Source: Nostoc sp. MG11
Lineage (GTDB): Bacteria > Cyanobacteriota > Cyanobacteriia > Cyanobacteriales > Nostocaceae
DNA length: 64,000 nucleotides
Assembly: GCF_014904695.1 (NCBI RefSeq)
Contig: NZ_JACXXN010000020.1
Coordinates: 1-64,000, forward strand
Direction: 5' to 3'
The translations under genes and the position numbers were made by a program. The notes beneath the pieces were generated by a model. The model ran no database searches, was not told where the DNA came from, and worked only from the letters and a program-made list of their open reading frames with translations. Of the stretch, positions 867-9,289 are shown piece by piece; the first letter of the stretch is position 1; each line of letters begins with the position of its first letter.

Positions 867-953
867 TGTTAAAACCTATGTAGATTTTGACTTTACTGCC
901 AGGGTCAGCAGACAATTTACCATAGCTGTTTAGCTATATCACCTAGTTGATTG

Positions 954-2315
954 ATGGATAATCAAGCGATGCCAACGGCAAGTACTTCCTCTTACACAAA
1001 GGTTCAATTTCTCCAGCGCCAAGCAGCGTCACTTTTACTGTACCAATCTGTCCTCCAAGGCGAAGTAGGGGTGGCATTTCTTGACCTGTTGCAAGCTATA
1101 CGTTACACTGATGCCGATGCGCGGGGTTGCCTCCAAGCCTACGGTACTTACTTCCACGCTTTGGCTGCTAGAAATCAAAATTGGGAAGACTACCTAATTA
1201 CTCAAATTCTCATCTCAGAGAACCCTTTTACAAGGATGGCTGAAGTGCGAGAATTTGAAGATTTGCCCCCAGCTTTAGTAACAGCTGTTCAACATGATTT
1301 ACAAGTATTGCAGAGTCTTTATGAATGTAGTAGCGCTTCTTTGAGTGAGTGGGTACAAACCGTAGCTCATCTGCCAATTTCACCAGTTGTTTGGTATCAA
1401 GACTTGAAAGAGGTAGGAGTAGGCACAAGATTCATTGCATTTCTACAACATTTAGAAAATTGGGGTAATGCTGTAGAAGATTTAGCAGCTTATTATCGAC
1501 AATTTGGCTCAGGTTTGTTTGCAGAATATCGCGCTCTGCGCTGGCAATCTGGGCAGCTTGTCGGTATTCGGTATTCAGATCCAGTTAAACTTAGCACACT
1601 TGTAGGTTACGAGTCTCAGCGAGATGCTTTGCTAAAAAATACAGAGTTTTTATTATCAGGAGAAATGGCACTACACGTATTACTTTACGGTAGTCGCGGT
1701 TCGGGAAAATCTTCTTTGGTGAAAGCTTTATTGAATGAATATAGCTATCACAACCTCCGTTTGTTAGAAGTGGCAAAATCTGATTTAAAAGATTTACCAA
1801 AAATTGTAGAACATCTGCGAGGAGTATCACAAAAATTTATTATCTTTGTCGATGACCTTTCTTTTGAAGAAGATGATGATGCCTTTAAAGCCCTCAAAGT
1901 AGTTTTAGAAGGTAATTTAACAGCACGACCTCAAAATGCAGTTGTGTACGCCACCTCCAACCGTCGTCACTTGATTCGAGAGTTTTTTGTCGATAGACCT
2001 GCTCCCAAAGACAATGAAGAGATCCATGCATGGGATACTATGCAAGAGAAGCTTTCATTTAGCGATCGCTTTGGTTTAACCTTAACCTTTGAACCAGCCG
2101 ATCAGAAAACTTATTTAAAAATTGTCGGGCATCTAGCAGCACAAGCTGAAATTAATATTAAGCCAGAAGATTTAGAATATCAAGCATTACAATGGGCAAC
2201 TCGTCACAACGGTCGTTCTGGTCGCACAGCACGGCAGTTTGTTGATTTTTTAAAAGCAGACTTAGTGCTATTTAGTGCAAATAACAATACGTCCGATACA
2301 CAACCTGAAAATTAA
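954..2315 (+). CDS. DUF815 family AAA+ ATPase
   Basis: A protein of about 453 residues with an alpha-helical N-terminal half (about 1-230) and a C-terminal P-loop ATPase. Walker A is LLYGSRGSGKSSLVKAL (about 242-258) and Walker B is KFIIFVDDLSFE (about 288-299), followed by the sensor-like YATSNRRHLIREFF. This order and the C-terminal NGRSGRTARQFVDFL match the DUF815 family of stand-alone AAA+ proteins; their substrate is unknown. I start at ATG 954 rather than the adjacent TTG 951. The next gene begins 150 bases downstream on the same strand, so they could share a transcript, but DUF815 genes are usually solitary. Confidence 0.8.
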   Translation: MDNQAMPTASTSSYTKVQFLQRQAASLLLYQSVLQGEVGVAFLDLLQAIRYTDADARGCLQAYGTYFHALAARNQNWEDYLITQILISENPFTRMAEVREFEDLPPALVTAVQHDLQVLQSLYECSSASLSEWVQTVAHLPISPVVWYQDLKEVGVGTRFIAFLQHLENWGNAVEDLAAYYRQFGSGLFAEYRALRWQSGQLVGIRYSDPVKLSTLVGYESQRDALLKNTEFLLSGEMALHVLLYGSRGSGKSSLVKALLNEYSYHNLRLLEVAKSDLKDLPKIVEHLRGVSQKFIIFVDDLSFEEDDDAFKALKVVLEGNLTARPQNAVVYATSNRRHLIREFFVDRPAPKDNEEIHAWDTMQEKLSFSDRFGLTLTFEPADQKTYLKIVGHLAAQAEINIKPEDLEYQALQWATRHNGRSGRTARQFVDFLKADLVLFSANNNTSDTQPEN

Positions 2316-2465: not shown

Positions 2466-3752
2466 ATGCAATCAGTAATGGTAAGCAATCGATTTATCTT
2501 AGGCATAGTAGCCTTCAGTGTGAGTTTTGGACTTAGCCTCGTCCCAAGCTGGGATTTAAATAAAGCCTTTCTCACAGGTGTAATTACCGTACTTGCTACA
2601 TATACAGCAGCATTATTTGTAGATAAGCGACGCAGAAATCATGAAATGCTTGTTTTAGGTTCTCTCCGCAAACGAATTAAAGAGATGGAGGGATTGAAGT
2701 TCCGTATTGTCAGAGAAATCAACCAAATAGAAGAACATCATAGTTTATTATACGCCGAATCGAAGCAACTGCAAAATCAAGTCACAGAATGCCGTAATCA
2801 AAGGGATAGTCTTAATCGAGAATTAAGCACTTTTGCAGGACAAAGAAAGCAGTTAGATGCTGAAATCAACAACCTGAAAACTGAACTTTATCATCTTGAT
2901 AAAAGTAGAACAGAACTGAACAATTCTTTTTCTACTCTGACATCTGAAAAACGCCGTTTAGAGTTGAATTATAATACATCTCGTGCTGAAATTACTCACT
3001 TACAAACTCAAATTTGTGAATTCCAGCAAGAAAAACAAGAACTTGAAAGCAATTTAACTCTGCTAGGTAGACTCAAACCTCAACTAGAAGAAAAATTGCA
3101 CGAACTGCGAATCAAAATTCAACAGCTAGAAACTGAAATAACTAAGGAAAATCAATTATTAGTAGCTACAACTAATGCCAGAGCAAATATAGAAGCTAGC
3201 CTGAATTCTTTTCAAACTCAAATTGCGTCTCAGAAAGTTGAACTCAATCATTTACAAGAGCAAATCACATTATTGCAAGAAGAACGAGATCTTTTGCAAA
3301 ATCAAGTTTGGGAACTACTCCAACAAGTAGAAACAATTGATCCGCCAGAAAGTTTGCCTGAAGACATACAGGGAGAGAATCTTGACTTATTTACTTTTTC
3401 TGGATTTGAACCCTTAGAACTAATAAATACTAAAGTCGATATTTCGGAAAATTTACCTGATGAATGGAATAATTTTCTGGAAAAACTACCAGGGCATGAA
3501 ATGCAAGTATTAAAAGCTATAGTTGAGCAAGATAATCCCAAAGTAGCTATTAAACAAATTGCCGAAGCAAATATTACCATGCCAAATCTATTAATCGATT
3601 CTATAAATGAGCGGGCAAGTGATACTATTGGTGAATTAATAATTGAACCTAATTTGGAAATTCCAGAAGTTTATCAAGAGCATATCACAAACGTCAGAAA
3701 AATGATCGCAATATATGAAATTCTCGTGGCTAGACACGCCTCATCAAATTGA
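2466..3752 (+). CDS. Membrane-anchored coiled-coil protein with TerB-C-like C-terminal domain
   Basis: 428 residues in three parts. Residues about 6-50 form two membrane segments ending in a DKRRRN basic stop. Residues about 55-300 are a long, nearly unbroken heptad-type coiled coil rich in E, Q, L, N and K. Residues about 335-425 form a globular tail with LPGHEMQVLKAIVEQ, a helical SINERASDTIGELII segment and a final IAIYEILV helix. This tail resembles the TerB-C domain found in proteins next to P-loop ATPases and helicases in Ter-type and DNA-processing loci. The following gene encodes such an ATPase 96 bases downstream. I infer a membrane-tethered scaffold for that ATPase. The TerB-C match is by eye and needs a profile search. 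Confidence 0.6.
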   Translation: MQSVMVSNRFILGIVAFSVSFGLSLVPSWDLNKAFLTGVITVLATYTAALFVDKRRRNHEMLVLGSLRKRIKEMEGLKFRIVREINQIEEHHSLLYAESKQLQNQVTECRNQRDSLNRELSTFAGQRKQLDAEINNLKTELYHLDKSRTELNNSFSTLTSEKRRLELNYNTSRAEITHLQTQICEFQQEKQELESNLTLLGRLKPQLEEKLHELRIKIQQLETEITKENQLLVATTNARANIEASLNSFQTQIASQKVELNHLQEQITLLQEERDLLQNQVWELLQQVETIDPPESLPEDIQGENLDLFTFSGFEPLELINTKVDISENLPDEWNNFLEKLPGHEMQVLKAIVEQDNPKVAIKQIAEANITMPNLLIDSINERASDTIGELIIEPNLEIPEVYQEHITNVRKMIAIYEILVARHASSN

Positions 3753-3848
3753 ATTATTCTCGCCGTTGTTAGGATATTAGTGAGGTGAGTATAAGCCCTA
3801 ACTTCTGGCTACGTGCCTCTGCGTTTTAAATAAAGTGAGGTGTAATAA

Positions 3849-5171
3849 ATGGCAAAGCTCAAACTCTCGAAAAAAATATCTACTGCTTTAATAAATTCTC
3901 TTGGTGCGGGAGTAGTACCAAGAGTGGGAGTTGAACACATAGCAGTAGGTCGAGAAAAGGAGCTTAAAAGCCTATTACAAAATCTTGACGACATTGCAGA
4001 AGGTATAGCGTCATTTCGTTTTATAATTGGTAACTACGGTTCAGGTAAAAGCTTCATGCTACAAATGATTCGTAACCGTGCTATGGAGCAAGGGTTTGTA
4101 GTAGCTGATGCTGATTTATCTTCCGAACGCCGATTGGCAGGAACTAATAATGAAGGTGTAGCAACCTATCGAGAACTAATGAGCCGCCTAGCTACAAAAA
4201 CTCGTCCTGATGGTGGTGCTTTAGTCTCAATTTTGGAAGGATGGATTAATAAAATTCAACAAGAAGTAGTTCAAGAAACTGGAATGCTTCCCAATGATGA
4301 TGGTTTTGATGACCAAGTTGAAGCAAAAATTAGGGAAGTAGTTCAGTATATTGAAGACTTAGTTCACGGATTTGATTTTGGCAGCGTTATTATTGCGTAT
4401 TGGCGTGGCTACCGATTAGATGATGATGAATTGAAAAACGCCGCAATGCGCTGGTTTCGTGGAGAATTTAGTACTAAGACTGAGGCAAAAGCAGCCTTGG
4501 GAGTGCGAGTGATTATTGATGATGATAGTTGGTATGACTACATTAAGCTATTCGCTAAGTTTGTGGCTGAGATTGGCTATAAAGGACTTTTAGTGTTGCT
4601 TGATGAAGCCGTACATATATATCAAATATCAACTACAGTTACTCGTGAAAAAAATTATAATAGACTACTGGCAATGTTTAATGACACTATGCAGTGCAAA
4701 GCAGAACATCTTGGCATTGTCATTGGTGGAACAACCAGATTTTTAGAAGATCCAAACCGGGGACTTTTTGCAGACCAAGCTTGGCGGAGGCGCACAAAAG
4801 AAAGCCGTTTTGTTACACAAGCTGGTGTTCAAGAATATTTAGGGCCAGTAATTCGGCTAAACCCGTTAAGTGAAGCAGAAATCCTGACGCTTTTGCAGCG
4901 CCTAACTGAGATTCATGCTGTCAATTTTGGGTATGACCAAGTTTTGACAAATCGTGAGTTAAAAGAGTTTGTCCAAGAAATTGTCAATCGCTTGGGTGCA
5001 GAAGCATTACTTACTCCAGGGGAAATTGTACGGGATTTTATGAGTTTGTTGAATATTATTCATCAAAATCCAGGAATTTCGTTTGGTGAATTAATTCATG
5101 GCTCTAAATTTAAACCTACTGCTGCGGGGAAAGATGTGGATGAAGATAATGCATCGGAGTTTAGTTTGTGA
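3849..5171 (+). CDS. BrxD-like (DUF2791) P-loop ATPase
   Basis: 440 residues. An N-terminal regulatory stretch (GVVPRVGVEHIAVGREKEL, 21-39) precedes Walker A GNYGSGKSFML (61-71). Walker B is KGLLVLLDEAVHI (about 245-257), and a sensor-like IVIGGTTRFLEDPNRGLF follows. This is the architecture of the DUF2791 family, which includes BrxD of BREX phage-defence systems and ATPases paired with SF2 helicases or TerB-N/TerB-C proteins. The start at ATG 3849 follows a GAGGTG purine run. The upstream neighbour carries the TerB-C-like tail. The stop codon overlaps the start of a very short downstream frame by four bases (GTGA). A full partner helicase or methylase is not present. Confidence 0.8.
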   Translation: MAKLKLSKKISTALINSLGAGVVPRVGVEHIAVGREKELKSLLQNLDDIAEGIASFRFIIGNYGSGKSFMLQMIRNRAMEQGFVVADADLSSERRLAGTNNEGVATYRELMSRLATKTRPDGGALVSILEGWINKIQQEVVQETGMLPNDDGFDDQVEAKIREVVQYIEDLVHGFDFGSVIIAYWRGYRLDDDELKNAAMRWFRGEFSTKTEAKAALGVRVIIDDDSWYDYIKLFAKFVAEIGYKGLLVLLDEAVHIYQISTTVTREKNYNRLLAMFNDTMQCKAEHLGIVIGGTTRFLEDPNRGLFADQAWRRRTKESRFVTQAGVQEYLGPVIRLNPLSEAEILTLLQRLTEIHAVNFGYDQVLTNRELKEFVQEIVNRLGAEALLTPGEIVRDFMSLLNIIHQNPGISFGELIHGSKFKPTAAGKDVDEDNASEFSL

Positions 5172-5239
5172 TTAATGAACTTGAAGACCTTTTAGATTTG
5201 CCATTTAACCAGCTGATCCCCTCAAAACTGTTATCTTGA
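5168..5239 (+). pseudogene. Truncated third cistron of the TerB-C / BrxD-like unit
   Basis: A GTG at 5168 overlaps the stop codon of the ATPase gene in a GTGA arrangement typical of translational coupling. It opens a frame of 23 residues starting MINELEDLLDLPFNQL and ending at TGA 5237-5239. The overlap suggests a real third cistron once began here. In related loci the gene after a DUF2791 ATPase is commonly an SF2 helicase or TerB-N protein, and the acidic opening followed by PFNQLIP could be its first residues. Identity is inference. Downstream sequence to 5347 shows no continuation in another frame that I recognise. Confidence 0.35.
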
Positions 5240-5347
5240 CATTACTTTAGGGAAAAATATACTTAGCCAAGGACTGAGTAAACAGCCATCTGAGCGGCCA
5301 AGTACAGTCCTGGAATTTTTGAGCTGCCTATATTTGAATTTAATTTT

Positions 5348-6319
5348 ATGGAGAAGTATCTAGTAGCGCAATGGCCCATCGCCAGACATTGCCTATTCCG
5401 TAATAGCGGAGTTCTGACTTTAGCAATGGTTGTAGCGCTACTAGGCGCAAGCTGTACTGGGAAAATATCTGGCAATCATCAGTCTATTAGGGATCGTGTC
5501 TCAGTTAGTAGCATAAATAACTTATCTACCTTAAAAATTGGCGTTTTGCCTACGCAAAGTCGGATAGAGCAAGAACGGATGATCAAACCATTGGATGAAT
5601 ACCTGGAAAAAGCGCTAAAGCGACAGGTCGATTTCCAAGTTGCCAAGGATTATCAAGAAGTAGTTGATTGGTTGGTGGAGGAAAAGGTAGATATGGCTTA
5701 TGTCGGAGCCGTGTCTTACTTTGAGGCTTTGGAGCGTGGTGCTGAAGTTGAACCGTTAATTGCGCCAATTGATAAGTACACAGGACGGCCGTGGTATCGA
5801 GCTGCAATTATCGTGGAAGCTAATAGTTCCATCAAAAAGTTGGAAGACTTAAAGGGGAAGCGAATTGCTTTTGTCAATAAATCATCAACCTCTGGCTATC
5901 TCATGCCGATCGCAGCATTTAAAAAGCTTAAGATTAACCCTGAGCAGGACTTTGCCCAAGTCATTTATCCTGGTACCCACGCTGAAAGTGAAGCGGCGCT
6001 GGAAAATAGACTCGTCGATGCAGTAGCAACAAATATCCCGTCATACATGAAACGGCAAAAAATCGGCAAGCTCACATCTGCTAACTCCAGAGTCCTTTGG
6101 GAGTCTGCTCCTGTTCCCCATTCGCCAATGCTGGTTTCCAAGAAACTCTCTCCTGAGTTGATCCAAGACTTGAAATGGGCATTTCTCAACATACCCGATG
6201 GCATGGAGGATATTGTAGGGACTGAAGTAGGCGGATATACCTTAGTTGAGGATGCAGACTATGCACTCATTAAGCAACTTCGAGTAGACCTTAACTTAAA
6301 CTTTGAGGCGGCGAAATGA
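5348..6319 (+). CDS. PhnD/PhoD-type periplasmic substrate-binding lipoprotein
   Basis: 323 residues. A signal peptide ends in a lipobox (LLGASC, Cys36), so the mature protein is a lipoprotein. From residue 58 (LKIGVLPTQSRIEQERMIKP) onward it follows the phosphate/phosphite/phosphonate-binding protein family: DMAYVGAVSYFEA, then LEDLKGKRIAFVNKSSTSGY and the FAQVIYPGTHAESEAAL hinge region. No permease or ATPase is adjacent. Instead the stop overlaps the start of a sensor histidine kinase by four bases (ATGA), so I infer that it presents a ligand, probably an oxyanion, to the kinase sensor domain rather than to a transporter. The ligand cannot be told from sequence. Confidence 0.85.
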   Translation: MEKYLVAQWPIARHCLFRNSGVLTLAMVVALLGASCTGKISGNHQSIRDRVSVSSINNLSTLKIGVLPTQSRIEQERMIKPLDEYLEKALKRQVDFQVAKDYQEVVDWLVEEKVDMAYVGAVSYFEALERGAEVEPLIAPIDKYTGRPWYRAAIIVEANSSIKKLEDLKGKRIAFVNKSSTSGYLMPIAAFKKLKINPEQDFAQVIYPGTHAESEAALENRLVDAVATNIPSYMKRQKIGKLTSANSRVLWESAPVPHSPMLVSKKLSPELIQDLKWAFLNIPDGMEDIVGTEVGGYTLVEDADYALIKQLRVDLNLNFEAAK

Positions 6320-8094
6320 AAATCTCAACTAAGTTTATTGCCTCTTCTGCTGTAGTTACTGCCTTAATTGCTGTTGTCGTGGGTGGGAGTACCGTCTTGC
6401 GGAATCAAGGTGATAAATCTATCCACCAAAAGTTTGAGAAAAGCAGTCGCATGATAGAAGTGGCACTTCAATCAGAGATTGATTTAACAAATGAAATTAT
6501 TATACTTAAAGACTATGTGTTATTAAAAGACCGATACATAGATATAGAAAAATATCAAACTAAGTTTATCACTGACCTCGACGAGCTAGAACGCTTGATG
6601 CCCCAGGCTCCAGAGCTAAATGCAATTCGTCGTCGTCATCAGTTTCTTATTCGCTTGGCAAGTGAGCTAGCAGATCCAATCCAGACTTCATCTGAAACTT
6701 ATCTGGCTGATTCTCAACAGGATTTCAGAGCAATCAATGCTTTTAACAGAGATATTGACTTCTTTTTAACCAAGCTGATTAATCGCGCTCGTCAGCAACA
6801 GTTGCTAGCTGAGCAGGAATTGGCACAACTTCAACGGACTTCACAAATGGTGTCCTATGCGATCGTAATTTTTATCCTTCTTGTTCCTGTCGGTAATTTT
6901 GTGCTGATCTTGCTTCCGGTCATCAGATCTCTAGGAAAGTTACAGCAAGGAGCTGAAATAATTGGTGCAGGTAACTTGGACTACTGTTTGAATTTGCAAA
7001 CGGGTGATGAAATTGAGCAACTGTCGCATGAATTCAATCGCATGGTAGTAAAACTGGCTAAATCCCACAGTGTATTAGTGGAGCGCAGCAGTGAATTAAG
7101 CAAACTAAATCAAAGTTTAGAAAACGAAATTAGCGATCGCGAACGCGTACTTCGTGAACGCGAACAAGCACAAACAGAACTCCAGCAAACTCTGCACGAA
7201 CTTCAAAGCACCCAATCGCAACTAATCCAAACTGAAAAAATGTCCAGTCTGGGTCAGCTTGTAGCAGGGGTAGCACACGAAATTAATAACCCCGTTAATT
7301 TTATTTATGGCAACATCACTCACGCTAGTCAATACACACAAGATTTACTAGATTTATTGCACCTTTACCAAGTAGAGTTTCCCAATCCAGGATATGAGAT
7401 TCAGGAAAAGCGTCAGGACATGGACTTGGATTTTCTGCTAGATGACCTGCCAAAAATTCTCAGTTCCATGAAAATGGGATCTGTGCGAATCCAACAGATT
7501 GTCTTGTCTTTACGCACCTTCTCTCGTCTGGATGAAGCAGATATGAAAGAGGTCGATATTCACGAAGGTATTGATAGTACTTTGCTGATTTTGCAAAATC
7601 GACTCAAAGCTAAGCCGGAGCATACCCAGATTGAAATTATCAAACAATATGGCCAACTGCCTTTGGTAGAGTGTTACGCAGGGCAGTTAAACCAGGTGTT
7701 TATGAACATTATTAATAACGCGATCGATGCCCTTGAAAGTCACAATGATCAGCGTTTTTCTGAAGAGATTCACACTCATCCCAGCAAGATTACAATTTGC
7801 ACCCAACTTATCAGCGATAACCGAGTGGTAGTGAGAATTGCTGACAATGGCCCAGGTATGGCTGGAGAGGTTCAGCAGAAGTTGTTTGACCCATTTTTCA
7901 CAACAAAAGCTGTCGGTCAGGGAACAGGTTTGGGTTTATCGATTAGCTACCAGATTATTGTGCAGAGACACTCTGGAGTGCTGCGGTGTGAGTCAGAACT
8001 GGGGAAAGGAACTGAGTTTTGGATTAATATTCCCTTGCGTCAGCAGAAGAAACAGCAAATCTGCAAAACTGAATTGGAAACAGTGCAAGCGTAG
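6316..8094 (+). CDS. Membrane sensor histidine kinase coupled to the PhnD-like protein
   Basis: 592 residues. TM1 about 8-28, a periplasmic helical sensor to about 175, TM2 about 177-200, then HAMP (LGKLQQGAEIIGAGNLDY region) and a coiled coil to about 300. The HisKA H-box is LVAGVAHEINNP with the phospho-accepting His at 321. The ATPase domain shows N-box FMNIINNAIDAL, G1 DNGPGM, F-box FDPFFTTK and G2 GTGLGLS. All kinase motifs look intact. No response regulator gene follows, so the output partner lies elsewhere. Translation is coupled to the upstream binding protein by an ATGA overlap, implying a fixed stoichiometry and a joint sensory role. Confidence 0.93.
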   Translation: MKISTKFIASSAVVTALIAVVVGGSTVLRNQGDKSIHQKFEKSSRMIEVALQSEIDLTNEIIILKDYVLLKDRYIDIEKYQTKFITDLDELERLMPQAPELNAIRRRHQFLIRLASELADPIQTSSETYLADSQQDFRAINAFNRDIDFFLTKLINRARQQQLLAEQELAQLQRTSQMVSYAIVIFILLVPVGNFVLILLPVIRSLGKLQQGAEIIGAGNLDYCLNLQTGDEIEQLSHEFNRMVVKLAKSHSVLVERSSELSKLNQSLENEISDRERVLREREQAQTELQQTLHELQSTQSQLIQTEKMSSLGQLVAGVAHEINNPVNFIYGNITHASQYTQDLLDLLHLYQVEFPNPGYEIQEKRQDMDLDFLLDDLPKILSSMKMGSVRIQQIVLSLRTFSRLDEADMKEVDIHEGIDSTLLILQNRLKAKPEHTQIEIIKQYGQLPLVECYAGQLNQVFMNIINNAIDALESHNDQRFSEEIHTHPSKITICTQLISDNRVVVRIADNGPGMAGEVQQKLFDPFFTTKAVGQGTGLGLSISYQIIVQRHSGVLRCESELGKGTEFWINIPLRQQKKQQICKTELETVQA

Positions 8095-8515: not shown

Positions 8516-9289
8516 ATGCAAAATTTCAATATATTCAACACTACAGGGCTGAGTTTAGAGTTGTTTCATGTGCAGACTAACACTTCTTTTGAGTTACCAC
8601 CAAATCTTGCTGTAATTCGCGTTGGTAAACCAAATGATCCAATTTTCCCAGATATTGATATTTCCAGTTTGCCAAATGCTGATTTAGTTTCTCGTATTCA
8701 TGCACAGATTCAGCTAGACGGAAGTAATTACTTCATTGAAGACTTGGAAAGCTCCAATGGCACATTTATCAACAACATCAGGCTAAAGCCTAGAACTCCT
8801 TATCAAGTGAATTTAGGAGATAGAATAGACCTTGGTCAAGGAAGTAAAGTAACATTTATACTTCAAGCTAAACCCCAATCTCAACCAAATCCTTCATTTA
8901 CCACAATTCAGTCTCAAAGCGCTGAAAATCAAAAAGCAACTTCGGTGGATAAGACAACCAAGCTTGTAGGTTTAGCTTTAATGGTTGCAGGTGTCGTAAT
9001 TTTAACTGCAAGTATTCGAGTTGGGATATTTTTTCGTATTCCTGGTATCTTGCTATGTTGTGCTGGGGTTTTTGTTCTACTACAACGACGTATAAACCCT
9101 AATTTAGGATGGATTTTAATAGCATTAGGAATTGCTGTAATAGCTTTTACTGGTAATGTATTCGCGTCAGTTAATCTTTTTGTGATTTTGGTATCATCTG
9201 CTTTATTATTTGCTGGATATCAACTTTTTACGACTGGGAAAATCTTGGATTATGATTTGCGATCGCTCCAAGCATTAATCAAGAAATAG
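8516..9289 (+). CDS. FHA domain membrane protein
   Basis: 257 residues. Residues about 30-120 form a forkhead-associated domain: VIRVGKP, then DLVSRIHAQIQL (the conserved S-R-I-H), then DLESSNGTFINN and LGDRIDLG. FHA domains bind phosphothreonine. A polar linker to about 145 is followed by about four membrane helices (roughly 147-235) and a short cytosolic tail. The protein therefore probably brings a phosphothreonine reader to the membrane, perhaps for a Ser/Thr kinase; the one at 17010-18290 is too far away to be an operon partner. The start is ATG 8516. It appears monocistronic. Confidence 0.85.
   Translation: MQNFNIFNTTGLSLELFHVQTNTSFELPPNLAVIRVGKPNDPIFPDIDISSLPNADLVSRIHAQIQLDGSNYFIEDLESSNGTFINNIRLKPRTPYQVNLGDRIDLGQGSKVTFILQAKPQSQPNPSFTTIQSQSAENQKATSVDKTTKLVGLALMVAGVVILTASIRVGIFFRIPGILLCCAGVFVLLQRRINPNLGWILIALGIAVIAFTGNVFASVNLFVILVSSALLFAGYQLFTTGKILDYDLRSLQALIKK

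What the first reader, a model, noticed from the sequence alone, without database searches (positions are those of the whole stretch)
2466..5239. Membrane TerB-C coiled-coil protein and BrxD-like ATPase with a truncated third cistron
Seen: a two-helix membrane anchor plus long coiled coil with a TerB-C-like tail, then a DUF2791/BrxD-type ATPase, then a GTGA-coupled frame that stops after 23 codons. Known: DUF2791 ATPases accompany SF2 helicases in BREX and TerB-N/TerB-C proteins in Ter-type loci. Inference: this is a conflict or DNA-processing system whose helicase was lost, or a minimal two-protein form. A membrane-tethered version with no methylase or nuclease would be unusual.
Basis: partly seen in the sequence, partly recalled or inferred. 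Interest (0 to 1): 0.72.

Follow-up and report, generated by a model that had tools for sequence, protein, structure and literature searches.

The report
Split, membrane-anchored Shango-type gene set
This cyanobacterium carries a complete but scattered version of the Shango anti-virus gene set, with its first protein rebuilt as a membrane-anchored arm and its helicase gene kept elsewhere in the genome, and its relatives pass the set on much like ordinary core genes, so tools that look only at neighbouring genes could miss it.

Summary
Both proteins are real. A (2466-3752) is a membrane hairpin, a long coiled coil and a TerB_C domain. B (3849-5171) is a PF10923 ATPase that fits PADLOC SngB (589 bits) far better than BrxD (178): Shango-type, not BREX. 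The "truncated third cistron" is not a gene remnant but upstream DNA of the next operon, abutting B in 2 of 5 genus genomes. The helicase is not lost: a full SngC (842 bits) lies on another contig, at least ~82 kb away. Of 60 relatives, 35 have intact B and 34 of these have SngC; none has SngC without B. Yet SngC is within 5 kb of B in only 9 of 34. A, B and C are under purifying selection, track RpoB divergence, and in the window genome sit among housekeeping genes as far as scanned. TerB_N, present in 4 of 4 canonical plasmid SngA, is undetected in 33 of 33 A orthologues. A usually stands beside a DUF815 ATPase gene, also in 7 genomes that lost B and C. Best reading: an intact, dispersed, vertically inherited Shango variant with a membrane-tethered SngA; a housekeeping DNA-processing role is the main rival. 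No activity was tested.

The parts
951..2315 (+). DUF815 AAA+ ATPase gene; usual upstream neighbour of A, present in most relatives with or without Shango; possible partner of A.
   Evidence: PF05673 7.3e-95; over the Pfam cut-off in 54 of 60 relatives, two of these (G045, G051) being fragments with stops; order D815-A-B in 59 of 80 named loci; beside A in 7 of 7 membrane-type A-only genomes. Exceptions are listed in the full report.
2466..3752 (+). A: SngA-type protein, 428 aa: membrane hairpin + coiled coil + TerB_C; no TerB_N detected.
   Evidence: TerB_C 7.1e-18; PADLOC SngA 2.7e-16 over the C-terminal part of the model; of 33 aligned members 33 match TerB_C and 33 match SngA, none TerB_N or TerB at E<=0.001.
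2466..2633 (+). A residues 1-56: two predicted membrane helices; the basic stretch VDKRRRN after the second suggests a cytoplasmic C-terminal part.
   Evidence: AlphaFold helices H2-28 and start of H31-284, pLDDT 52-81 here; two N-terminal hydrophobic segments in 60 of 60 membrane-type A of the named loci at a hydropathy threshold of 1.5; dN/dS of this part 0.06-0.14 in 4 pairs.
2634..3317 (+). A residues 57-284: one continuous helix, coiled coil; a disordered linker 285-331 follows.
   Evidence: pLDDT mostly above 80; below 50 in 284-325.
3459..3749 (+). A residues 332-428: core of TerB_C, modelled as a winged-helix-like domain; invariant M372 P373 L375 L376 I377 D378 N381 A384 in 33 sequences.
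   Evidence: LysR-type DNA-binding domains, best Z 8.6, rmsd 2.5, 84 residues aligned.
3849..5171 (+). B: SngB-type AAA+ ATPase, 440 aa, Walker A GNYGSGKS (61-68), Walker B ...DE (252-253).
   Evidence: PF10923 1.9e-167; PADLOC SngB 588.6 bits against BrxD 177.8; NCBIfam BrxD 178.9, below its cut-off of 350; G61, Y63, G64, G66-S68 and D252-E253 invariant in 20 of 20 sequences.
5168..5239 (+). GTGA-coupled 23-codon frame; not a cistron: upstream DNA of the 5348-8094 operon lying against B, most simply through a small deletion (inferred).
5348..6319 (+). Neighbour, not part of the system: phosphonate-type binding protein, overlapping a histidine kinase gene (6316-8094).
   Evidence: PF12974 3e-55; HATPase_c 4.8e-24.

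Best explanation
A and B are the SngA- and SngB-type members of a complete Shango-type set whose SngC helicase gene sits elsewhere in the same genome (G000:C172:376274-378442). The set is intact, inherited vertically, and works in trans. SngA here carries, in place of the TerB_N part, a membrane hairpin and a long coiled coil that ends in the shared TerB_C domain. Proposed mechanism (inferred): A is a membrane-tethered arm whose C-terminal TerB_C engages DNA or, more likely, the SngB/SngC pair; SngB, an ORC/Cdc6-like AAA+ ATPase, loads or gates the SF2 helicase SngC on incoming or abnormal DNA near the membrane and so stops its replication. The DUF815 ATPase encoded next to A may energise or regulate A. 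Shown: identity of the three proteins, co-occurrence, selection, dispersal. Inferred: topology, winged helix, helicase loading, antiviral outcome. Sub-estimates: complete dispersed Shango-type set 0.9; antiviral as main role 0.55; this particular mechanism 0.35.
For: SngB 589 bits; SngC 842 bits against BrxHI 464; TerB_C and PADLOC SngA matches in 33 of 33 orthologues. Among 60 relatives (window genome included) intact B and SngC are together in 34, B alone in 1 (G021, SngC decayed), SngC alone in 0 (tabulated). Among 386 genomes of the phylum SngC at E<=1e-140 is in 44, all of them among the 46 with SngB-grade B. SngC is within 5 kb of B in only 9 of 34 and yet retained. dN/dS in 5 genus pairs: A 0.10-0.24, B 0.03-0.14, C 0.10-0.13. 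Correlation of pairwise distances with RpoB in 29 genomes: A 0.77, B 0.81, C 0.79, DUF815 0.75. DE[IVL]H and motif VI in 30 of 30 SngC, Walker A in 31 of 31 B. Papers, passages only: Shango of PA14 (TerB-like protein, ATPase, DEAD/DEAH helicase) inhibits several phages (PMC10250203); SngC groups with BrxHI, DruE and DpdJ (PMC12278908); BrxD is classed as ORC-Cdc6-type AAA+ and suggested to load or activate BrxHI (PMC12839542).
Against: No activity was tested. Core-like, vertical inheritance and a housekeeping neighbourhood (10 other window ORFs and 8 neighbours of sngC scanned) are unlike the usual mobile defence island. In 7 genomes A persists intact without B and C, so A has, or recently had, another role. 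TerB_N, present in all four canonical plasmid SngA examined, was not detected. The winged-helix match is middling (Foldseek E 0.019 at best; best Z 8.6). Strict motif patterns miss some: helicase motif I 29 of 30 C, Walker B pattern 27 of 31 B, TerB_C pattern 24 of 31 A. Related genomes are not independent, so the Fisher values overstate significance.
Confidence: 0.6

Rival explanations
1. Domesticated housekeeping machine: DUF815, A, B and C form a membrane-linked DNA-maintenance or helicase-loading module of filamentous cyanobacteria (replication restart, segregation of many chromosome copies, or DNA uptake) that shares ancestry with Shango but is not mainly antiviral.
For: A, B and C in 34, 32 and 31 of 36 family genomes; vertical divergence; purifying selection; housekeeping neighbours as far as scanned; separation of SngC from B without loss; the DUF815-A pair outlives B and C.
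Against: B and C are dispensable: both absent from G017, G020 and G031 and from 7 of the 9 sampled genomes of genus g28. Outside the family the set is patchy: SngB-grade B in 33 of 43 listed family genomes but in 13 of the other 343. The nearest non-cyanobacterial relatives found are canonical-looking Shango operons of Paenibacillus.
Confidence: 0.35
2. Decayed Shango that lost its helicase, or a minimal two-protein system.
For: No helicase follows B in the window; the GTGA-coupled frame stops after 23 codons.
Against: Full-length SngC elsewhere in the genome; the short frame is upstream DNA of the next operon; purifying selection on A, B and C.
Confidence: 0.03
3. Fragment of a type 2 BREX system (BrxD plus BrxHI).
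For: PF10923 is shared with BrxC/BrxD; SngC scores 464 bits against a BrxHI model.
Against: SngB and SngC models score far higher (589 against 178; 842 against 464); BrxD is below the NCBIfam cut-off; the partner has TerB_C. Other BREX genes were not searched for genome-wide.
Confidence: 0.02

Closest known systems
Shango (SngABC) of P. aeruginosa PA14, E. coli and plasmids
   Same: Homologous SngB ATPase and SngC SF2 helicase; SngA ends in TerB_C.
   Different: Here SngA has a membrane hairpin and coiled coil and no detected TerB_N or TerB; SngC is unlinked; the set is core-like and vertical, beside DUF815 and not in a defence island.
Paenibacillus Shango (e.g. NZ_CP045296.1, L161)
   Same: Nearest non-cyanobacterial relatives found: B 55-57% identical (6 loci), C 45-48% (2 plasmids); TerB_C 31% over 123 residues.
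   Different: SngA has TerB_N (L161) and no N-terminal hydrophobic hairpin; the three genes overlap or adjoin.
BREX type 2 BrxD-BrxHI dyad
   Same: AAA+ ATPase plus SF2 helicase pair; the ATPase is suggested to load the helicase (PMC12839542, passages).
   Different: Clearly lower model scores for B and C; a TerB_C partner instead of PglZ, BrxX and PglW.
JetC/MukB-like and SMC coiled-coil proteins
   Same: PADLOC JetC3 (1.5e-10) and NCBIfam SMC (1.9e-12) hits to A.
   Different: These hits cover only the coiled coil; A has no ATPase head.

Membership tests
Shango | SngB, a PF10923-type ATPase | tested here: met
   PADLOC SngB 588.6 bits, residues 2-438 of 440.
Shango | SngC SF2 helicase in the same genome | tested here: met
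   PADLOC SngC 842 bits over model positions 5-715 of 720.
Shango | SngA with a TerB_C domain | tested here: met
   PF15615 7.1e-18; 33 of 33 orthologues.
Shango | SngA with a TerB_N (and/or TerB) part | tested here: not met
   No TerB_N or TerB match at E<=0.001 in 33 of 33 members; TerB_N in 4 of 4 and TerB in 2 of 4 canonical plasmid SngA.
Shango | three adjacent genes A-B-C | tested here: not met
   SngC is on another contig in the window genome; within 5 kb of B in 9 of 34 relatives with both.
Shango | anti-phage activity | not testable with these tools
   Needs phage challenge.
BREX (BrxD) | BrxD equivalog score | tested here: not met
   NF033438 178.9 bits, cut-off 350.
BREX (BrxD) | PglZ, BrxC and BrxX with it | not tested
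   No search was made for these genes.
winged-helix (LysR-type) domain for TerB_C of A | fold | tested here: inconclusive
   Best Z 8.6, rmsd 2.5, 84 residues aligned; Foldseek E 0.019 at best.

The most novel reading that the evidence does not exclude
In filamentous cyanobacteria a membrane coiled-coil protein paired with DUF815 carries the Shango TerB_C domain, so that a Shango helicase module became a resident, membrane-coupled, scattered, core-like system with DUF815 as a fourth component. Membrane coiled-coil homologues of A beside DUF815 in genomes without SngB or SngC (G052, G058, G059) and an A that stops before TerB_C in G020 hint that the membrane part belongs with DUF815 and that TerB_C is the plug into SngB/SngC.
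Probability: 0.3. Interest if true: 0.8.

Novelty: new variant of a known kind. Interest (0 to 1): 0.6.

Why it matters
It would also be a case of a system known from variable defence islands kept as a core-like, vertically inherited set with a swapped sensor arm. That gives a handle on what TerB_C does (couple different sensor arms to SngB/SngC) and on whether such machines have a cellular role.

Tried and rejected
The 23-codon frame as a sngC remnant: rejected. BREX fragment: rejected on scores. DUF815 as an obligate part: rejected, since it is over cut-off in 54 of 60 relatives while intact B is in 35 of 60; kept as a possible partner of A. Repeats around 5100-5420: none found. Solved structures by sequence: B only E 0.64 and 0.66, its profile none at E<=0.01; A only coiled-coil stretches of unrelated proteins. 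Fold of B: AAA+ ATPases, weak; best RdrA ring, E 6.2e-5, TMq 0.32, and ORC chains TMq 0.34-0.38. Phage records: no match to B. Plasmid records: 692 match B, all under 60% identity.

Literature: no paper describing Shango in cyanobacteria was seen in the listings (one open-licence library; searches list only 20 of 317, 25 of 124 and 10 of 2,011). Shango, cyanobacteria and 'defense systems' together gave two papers: in PMC11096173 (passages) Shango is in E. coli islands and the cyanobacteria concern ApsAB; PMC11291487 was seen in the listing only. PMC10952713: one passage. DUF815: 5 papers listed, none about its function by title.

Rows left out or qualified. The distance comparison used 29 genomes: of 31 with A and B entered, G024 had no DUF815 in its stretch and G013 was not in the SngC and RpoB sets; G018, G021, G046, G049 and G057 were not entered; RpoB of G034 is partial, 603 aa. 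SngC of G013 counts as present but holds one in-frame TAG. In one search, 46 of 50 genomes are SngB-grade (over 390 bits); four at 220-232 bits (G060, G064, G083, G088) were set aside as BrxD-like; the B of G018 among the 46 is broken. In one search the SngC of G404 is cut by a contig end and that of G091 is weaker (488 bits, on another contig than its B). The 33 rows of alignment A2 are the window and 32 of the 60 loci with a membrane-type A, chosen by me for spread. Hydropathy calls depend on the threshold: at 1.6, A of L172 and L180 shows one segment.
Full report
What is there. Window 2466-3752 encodes a 428-aa protein (A) and 3849-5171 a 440-aa ATPase (B); a DUF815 AAA+ gene (951-2315) precedes them, and a phosphonate-type binding protein/histidine kinase pair follows. 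A matches TerB_C (PF15615, 7.1e-18) and the C-terminal part of PADLOC SngA (2.7e-16). B matches PF10923 (1.9e-167) and PADLOC SngB at 588.6 bits against 177.8 for BrxD; NCBIfam BrxD is below its cut-off (178.9 against 350). The pair is Shango-type. The nearest named relative found is Komarekiella delphini-convector (B 97% identical).

The third cistron. The GTGA frame (5168-5239) reads MINELEDLLDLPFNQLIPSKLLS. A search of the 5 genus genomes with 120 bases found this DNA in 4. The frame is the same in G003. In G001 the DNA starts 31 bp after B, in register but behind a stop codon; in G004 it starts 432 bp after B and out of register; G002 gave no match. In these four genomes it runs on into the upstream region of the next operon. 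Most simply, a small deletion put it against B. The true SngC begins MTFSRLAPFIQEYIYNHNW, unlike this peptide.

The helicase. The window genome has one strong SngC match, G000:C172:376277-378418 (842 bits). The ORF is L100:8275-10443, 722 aa, with DEAD and Helicase_C domains and 842 bits to SngC against 464 to BrxHI. B lies 3.8 kb from one end of its 106-kb contig and sngC 78 kb from the nearer end of its 456-kb contig, so the genes are at least about 82 kb apart (contig lengths). Of 8 neighbours of sngC, 6 have Pfam matches (methyltransferase, MFS transporter, beta-propeller repeat, dihydroorotate dehydrogenase, oxidoreductase with 4Fe-4S domains, Ni-hydrogenase). Of 10 other window ORFs scanned, 9 have matches, among them alanine dehydrogenase, tocopherol cyclase, IMP dehydrogenase, an amidohydrolase, a protein kinase, a WD40 protein and cytochrome oxidase subunit 1. 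PADLOC was not run on these neighbours. As far as scanned, neither place looks like a defence island.

Co-occurrence. Over 60 relatives, window genome included, B is intact in 35 (broken in G018), SngC in 34 (one, G013, with an in-frame TAG) and TerB_C in 37. B with SngC: 34; B without: 1 (G021, SngC decayed); SngC without B: 0 (table). In the 36 family genomes: A 34, B 32, C 31, DUF815 35. Over 386 phylum genomes, 46 have SngB-grade B; SngC at E<=1e-140 is in 44, all among the 46; the two without are G018 and G021. By relatedness, SngB-grade B is in 33 of the 43 listed family genomes and in 13 of the other 343. TerB_C is in 53 of 386: 45 of the 46, plus 8 without B. Genomes are related, so the Fisher values are overstated.

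Dispersal. Of the 34 genomes with both, SngC is within 5 kb of B in 9, on the same contig but 15 kb to 3.3 Mb away in 7, and on another contig in 18 (places). Genes flanking unlinked sngC are shared only in small groups of genomes. In 80 named loci, SngC is in the fetched flank in 31 (25 cyanobacterial, 6 Paenibacillus), absent with a full flank in 40, and 9 flanks are cut. In L262 (Chroococcidiopsidaceae) B and C overlap by 4 bp, which looks like the older order (inferred).

Selection and inheritance. In 5 genus pairs dN/dS is 0.10-0.24 for A, 0.03-0.14 for B, 0.10-0.13 for C, 0.13-0.20 for DUF815 and 0.005-0.014 for RpoB. In 29 genomes pairwise distances correlate with RpoB at 0.77, 0.81, 0.79 and 0.75 for A, B, C and DUF815. 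This fits vertical inheritance within the family; no formal tree test was made.

The unusual SngA. Four canonical plasmid SngA have TerB_N in 4 of 4, TerB_C in 4 of 4 and TerB in 2 of 4. The 33 membrane-type proteins all match TerB_C; none matches TerB_N or TerB at E<=0.001. Two N-terminal hydrophobic segments are present in 60 of 60 membrane-type A of the named loci and in none of the Paenibacillus SngA pieces. Not all cyanobacterial SngA are of this type: in 7 of the 46 SngB-bearing phylum genomes (G071, G073, G091, G166, G335, G387, G404) the gene before B resembles canonical SngA, and two of these (G166, G387; 714 aa) have a single N-terminal hydrophobic segment, so membrane attachment may not be confined to this variant. 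The AlphaFold model of A has helices 2-28 and 31-284, a disordered linker and a mostly helical domain 332-427 (mean pLDDT 81.2, pTM 0.28). That domain aligns with LysR-type winged helices (best Z 8.6, rmsd 2.5, 84 residues); by the tool's own note this is only moderately informative.

DUF815. The gene is over cut-off in 54 of 60 relatives, with or without Shango. The order D815-A-B occurs in 59 of 80 named loci. Seven genomes keep a membrane-type A next to DUF815 without B and C (G031, G111, G147, G196, G198, G284, G323); A is intact there, with dN/dS 0.16-0.26 in 7 A-only pairs against 0.06 and 0.19 in two pairs with the full set. The eighth TerB_C genome without B, G103, has a canonical-like protein. 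A stays with DUF815 where B, or B and C, lie elsewhere (G021, G049). G020 (no B or C) has an A cut before TerB_C beside DUF815. Of 15 Shango-less order-level genomes whose DUF815 surroundings I read, 3 (G052, G058, G059) have a membrane coiled-coil homologue of A downstream; that of G052 ends before TerB_C, that of G058 aligns along most of A although TerB_C was not detected; the other 12 have none. Against a tight pairing: in G024, G136, G160, G226, G328 and L250 membrane-type A has no DUF815 in the stretch read, G057 has no DUF815 match, and in G108 DUF815 stands next to B with A elsewhere.

Mechanism. Shown: the parts, their coupling by co-occurrence, and constraint. Inferred: A is a membrane arm; SngB, whose relative BrxD is compared with replicative helicase loaders (PMC12839542, passages), loads or gates SngC, a helicase of the proposed SngC/BrxHI/DruE/DpdJ clade (PMC12278908, passages). 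Shango of PA14 inhibits several phages in PAO1 (PMC10250203, passages), so an antiviral role is likely; core-like inheritance leaves a housekeeping role open.

Verdict. Known kinds of enzymes in an unusual, scattered, core-like, membrane-anchored form. I call it a new variant of Shango and not a plain member, because the TerB_N part and gene adjacency were tested and not met.

Noticed in passing
window 5348-8094: Phosphonate-type periplasmic binding protein gene overlapping (ATGA) a HAMP histidine kinase gene: a probable binding-protein/kinase sensor pair.
   Followed up: no
window 8516-9289: FHA domain followed by a LiaF-type membrane domain.
   Followed up: no
G016:C8:6041-9445 (L066): A second, distant BrxD-like ATPase (24% identity to B) followed by an SngC/BrxHI-like helicase (474 bits).
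   Followed up: no
G020 (L303:6471-7436): A homologue of A that stops before TerB_C, beside DUF815, in a genome without B and C.
   Followed up: partly
G052, G058, G059 (L315, L319, L320): Membrane coiled-coil homologues of A downstream of DUF815 in genomes without SngB or SngC.
   Followed up: partly
G166 and G387 (L174:7623-9767, L175:4770-6914): Canonical-like 714-aa SngA with one N-terminal hydrophobic segment.
   Followed up: no
L179:1007-2269: HopA1-family protein (PF17914) encoded near DUF815 in a relative.
   Followed up: no
L242, L243, L245, L247, L255, L256: Loci, mostly Leptolyngbya-like, with linked B and C but no A in the fetched flank; in G049 A lies elsewhere beside DUF815.
   Followed up: partly
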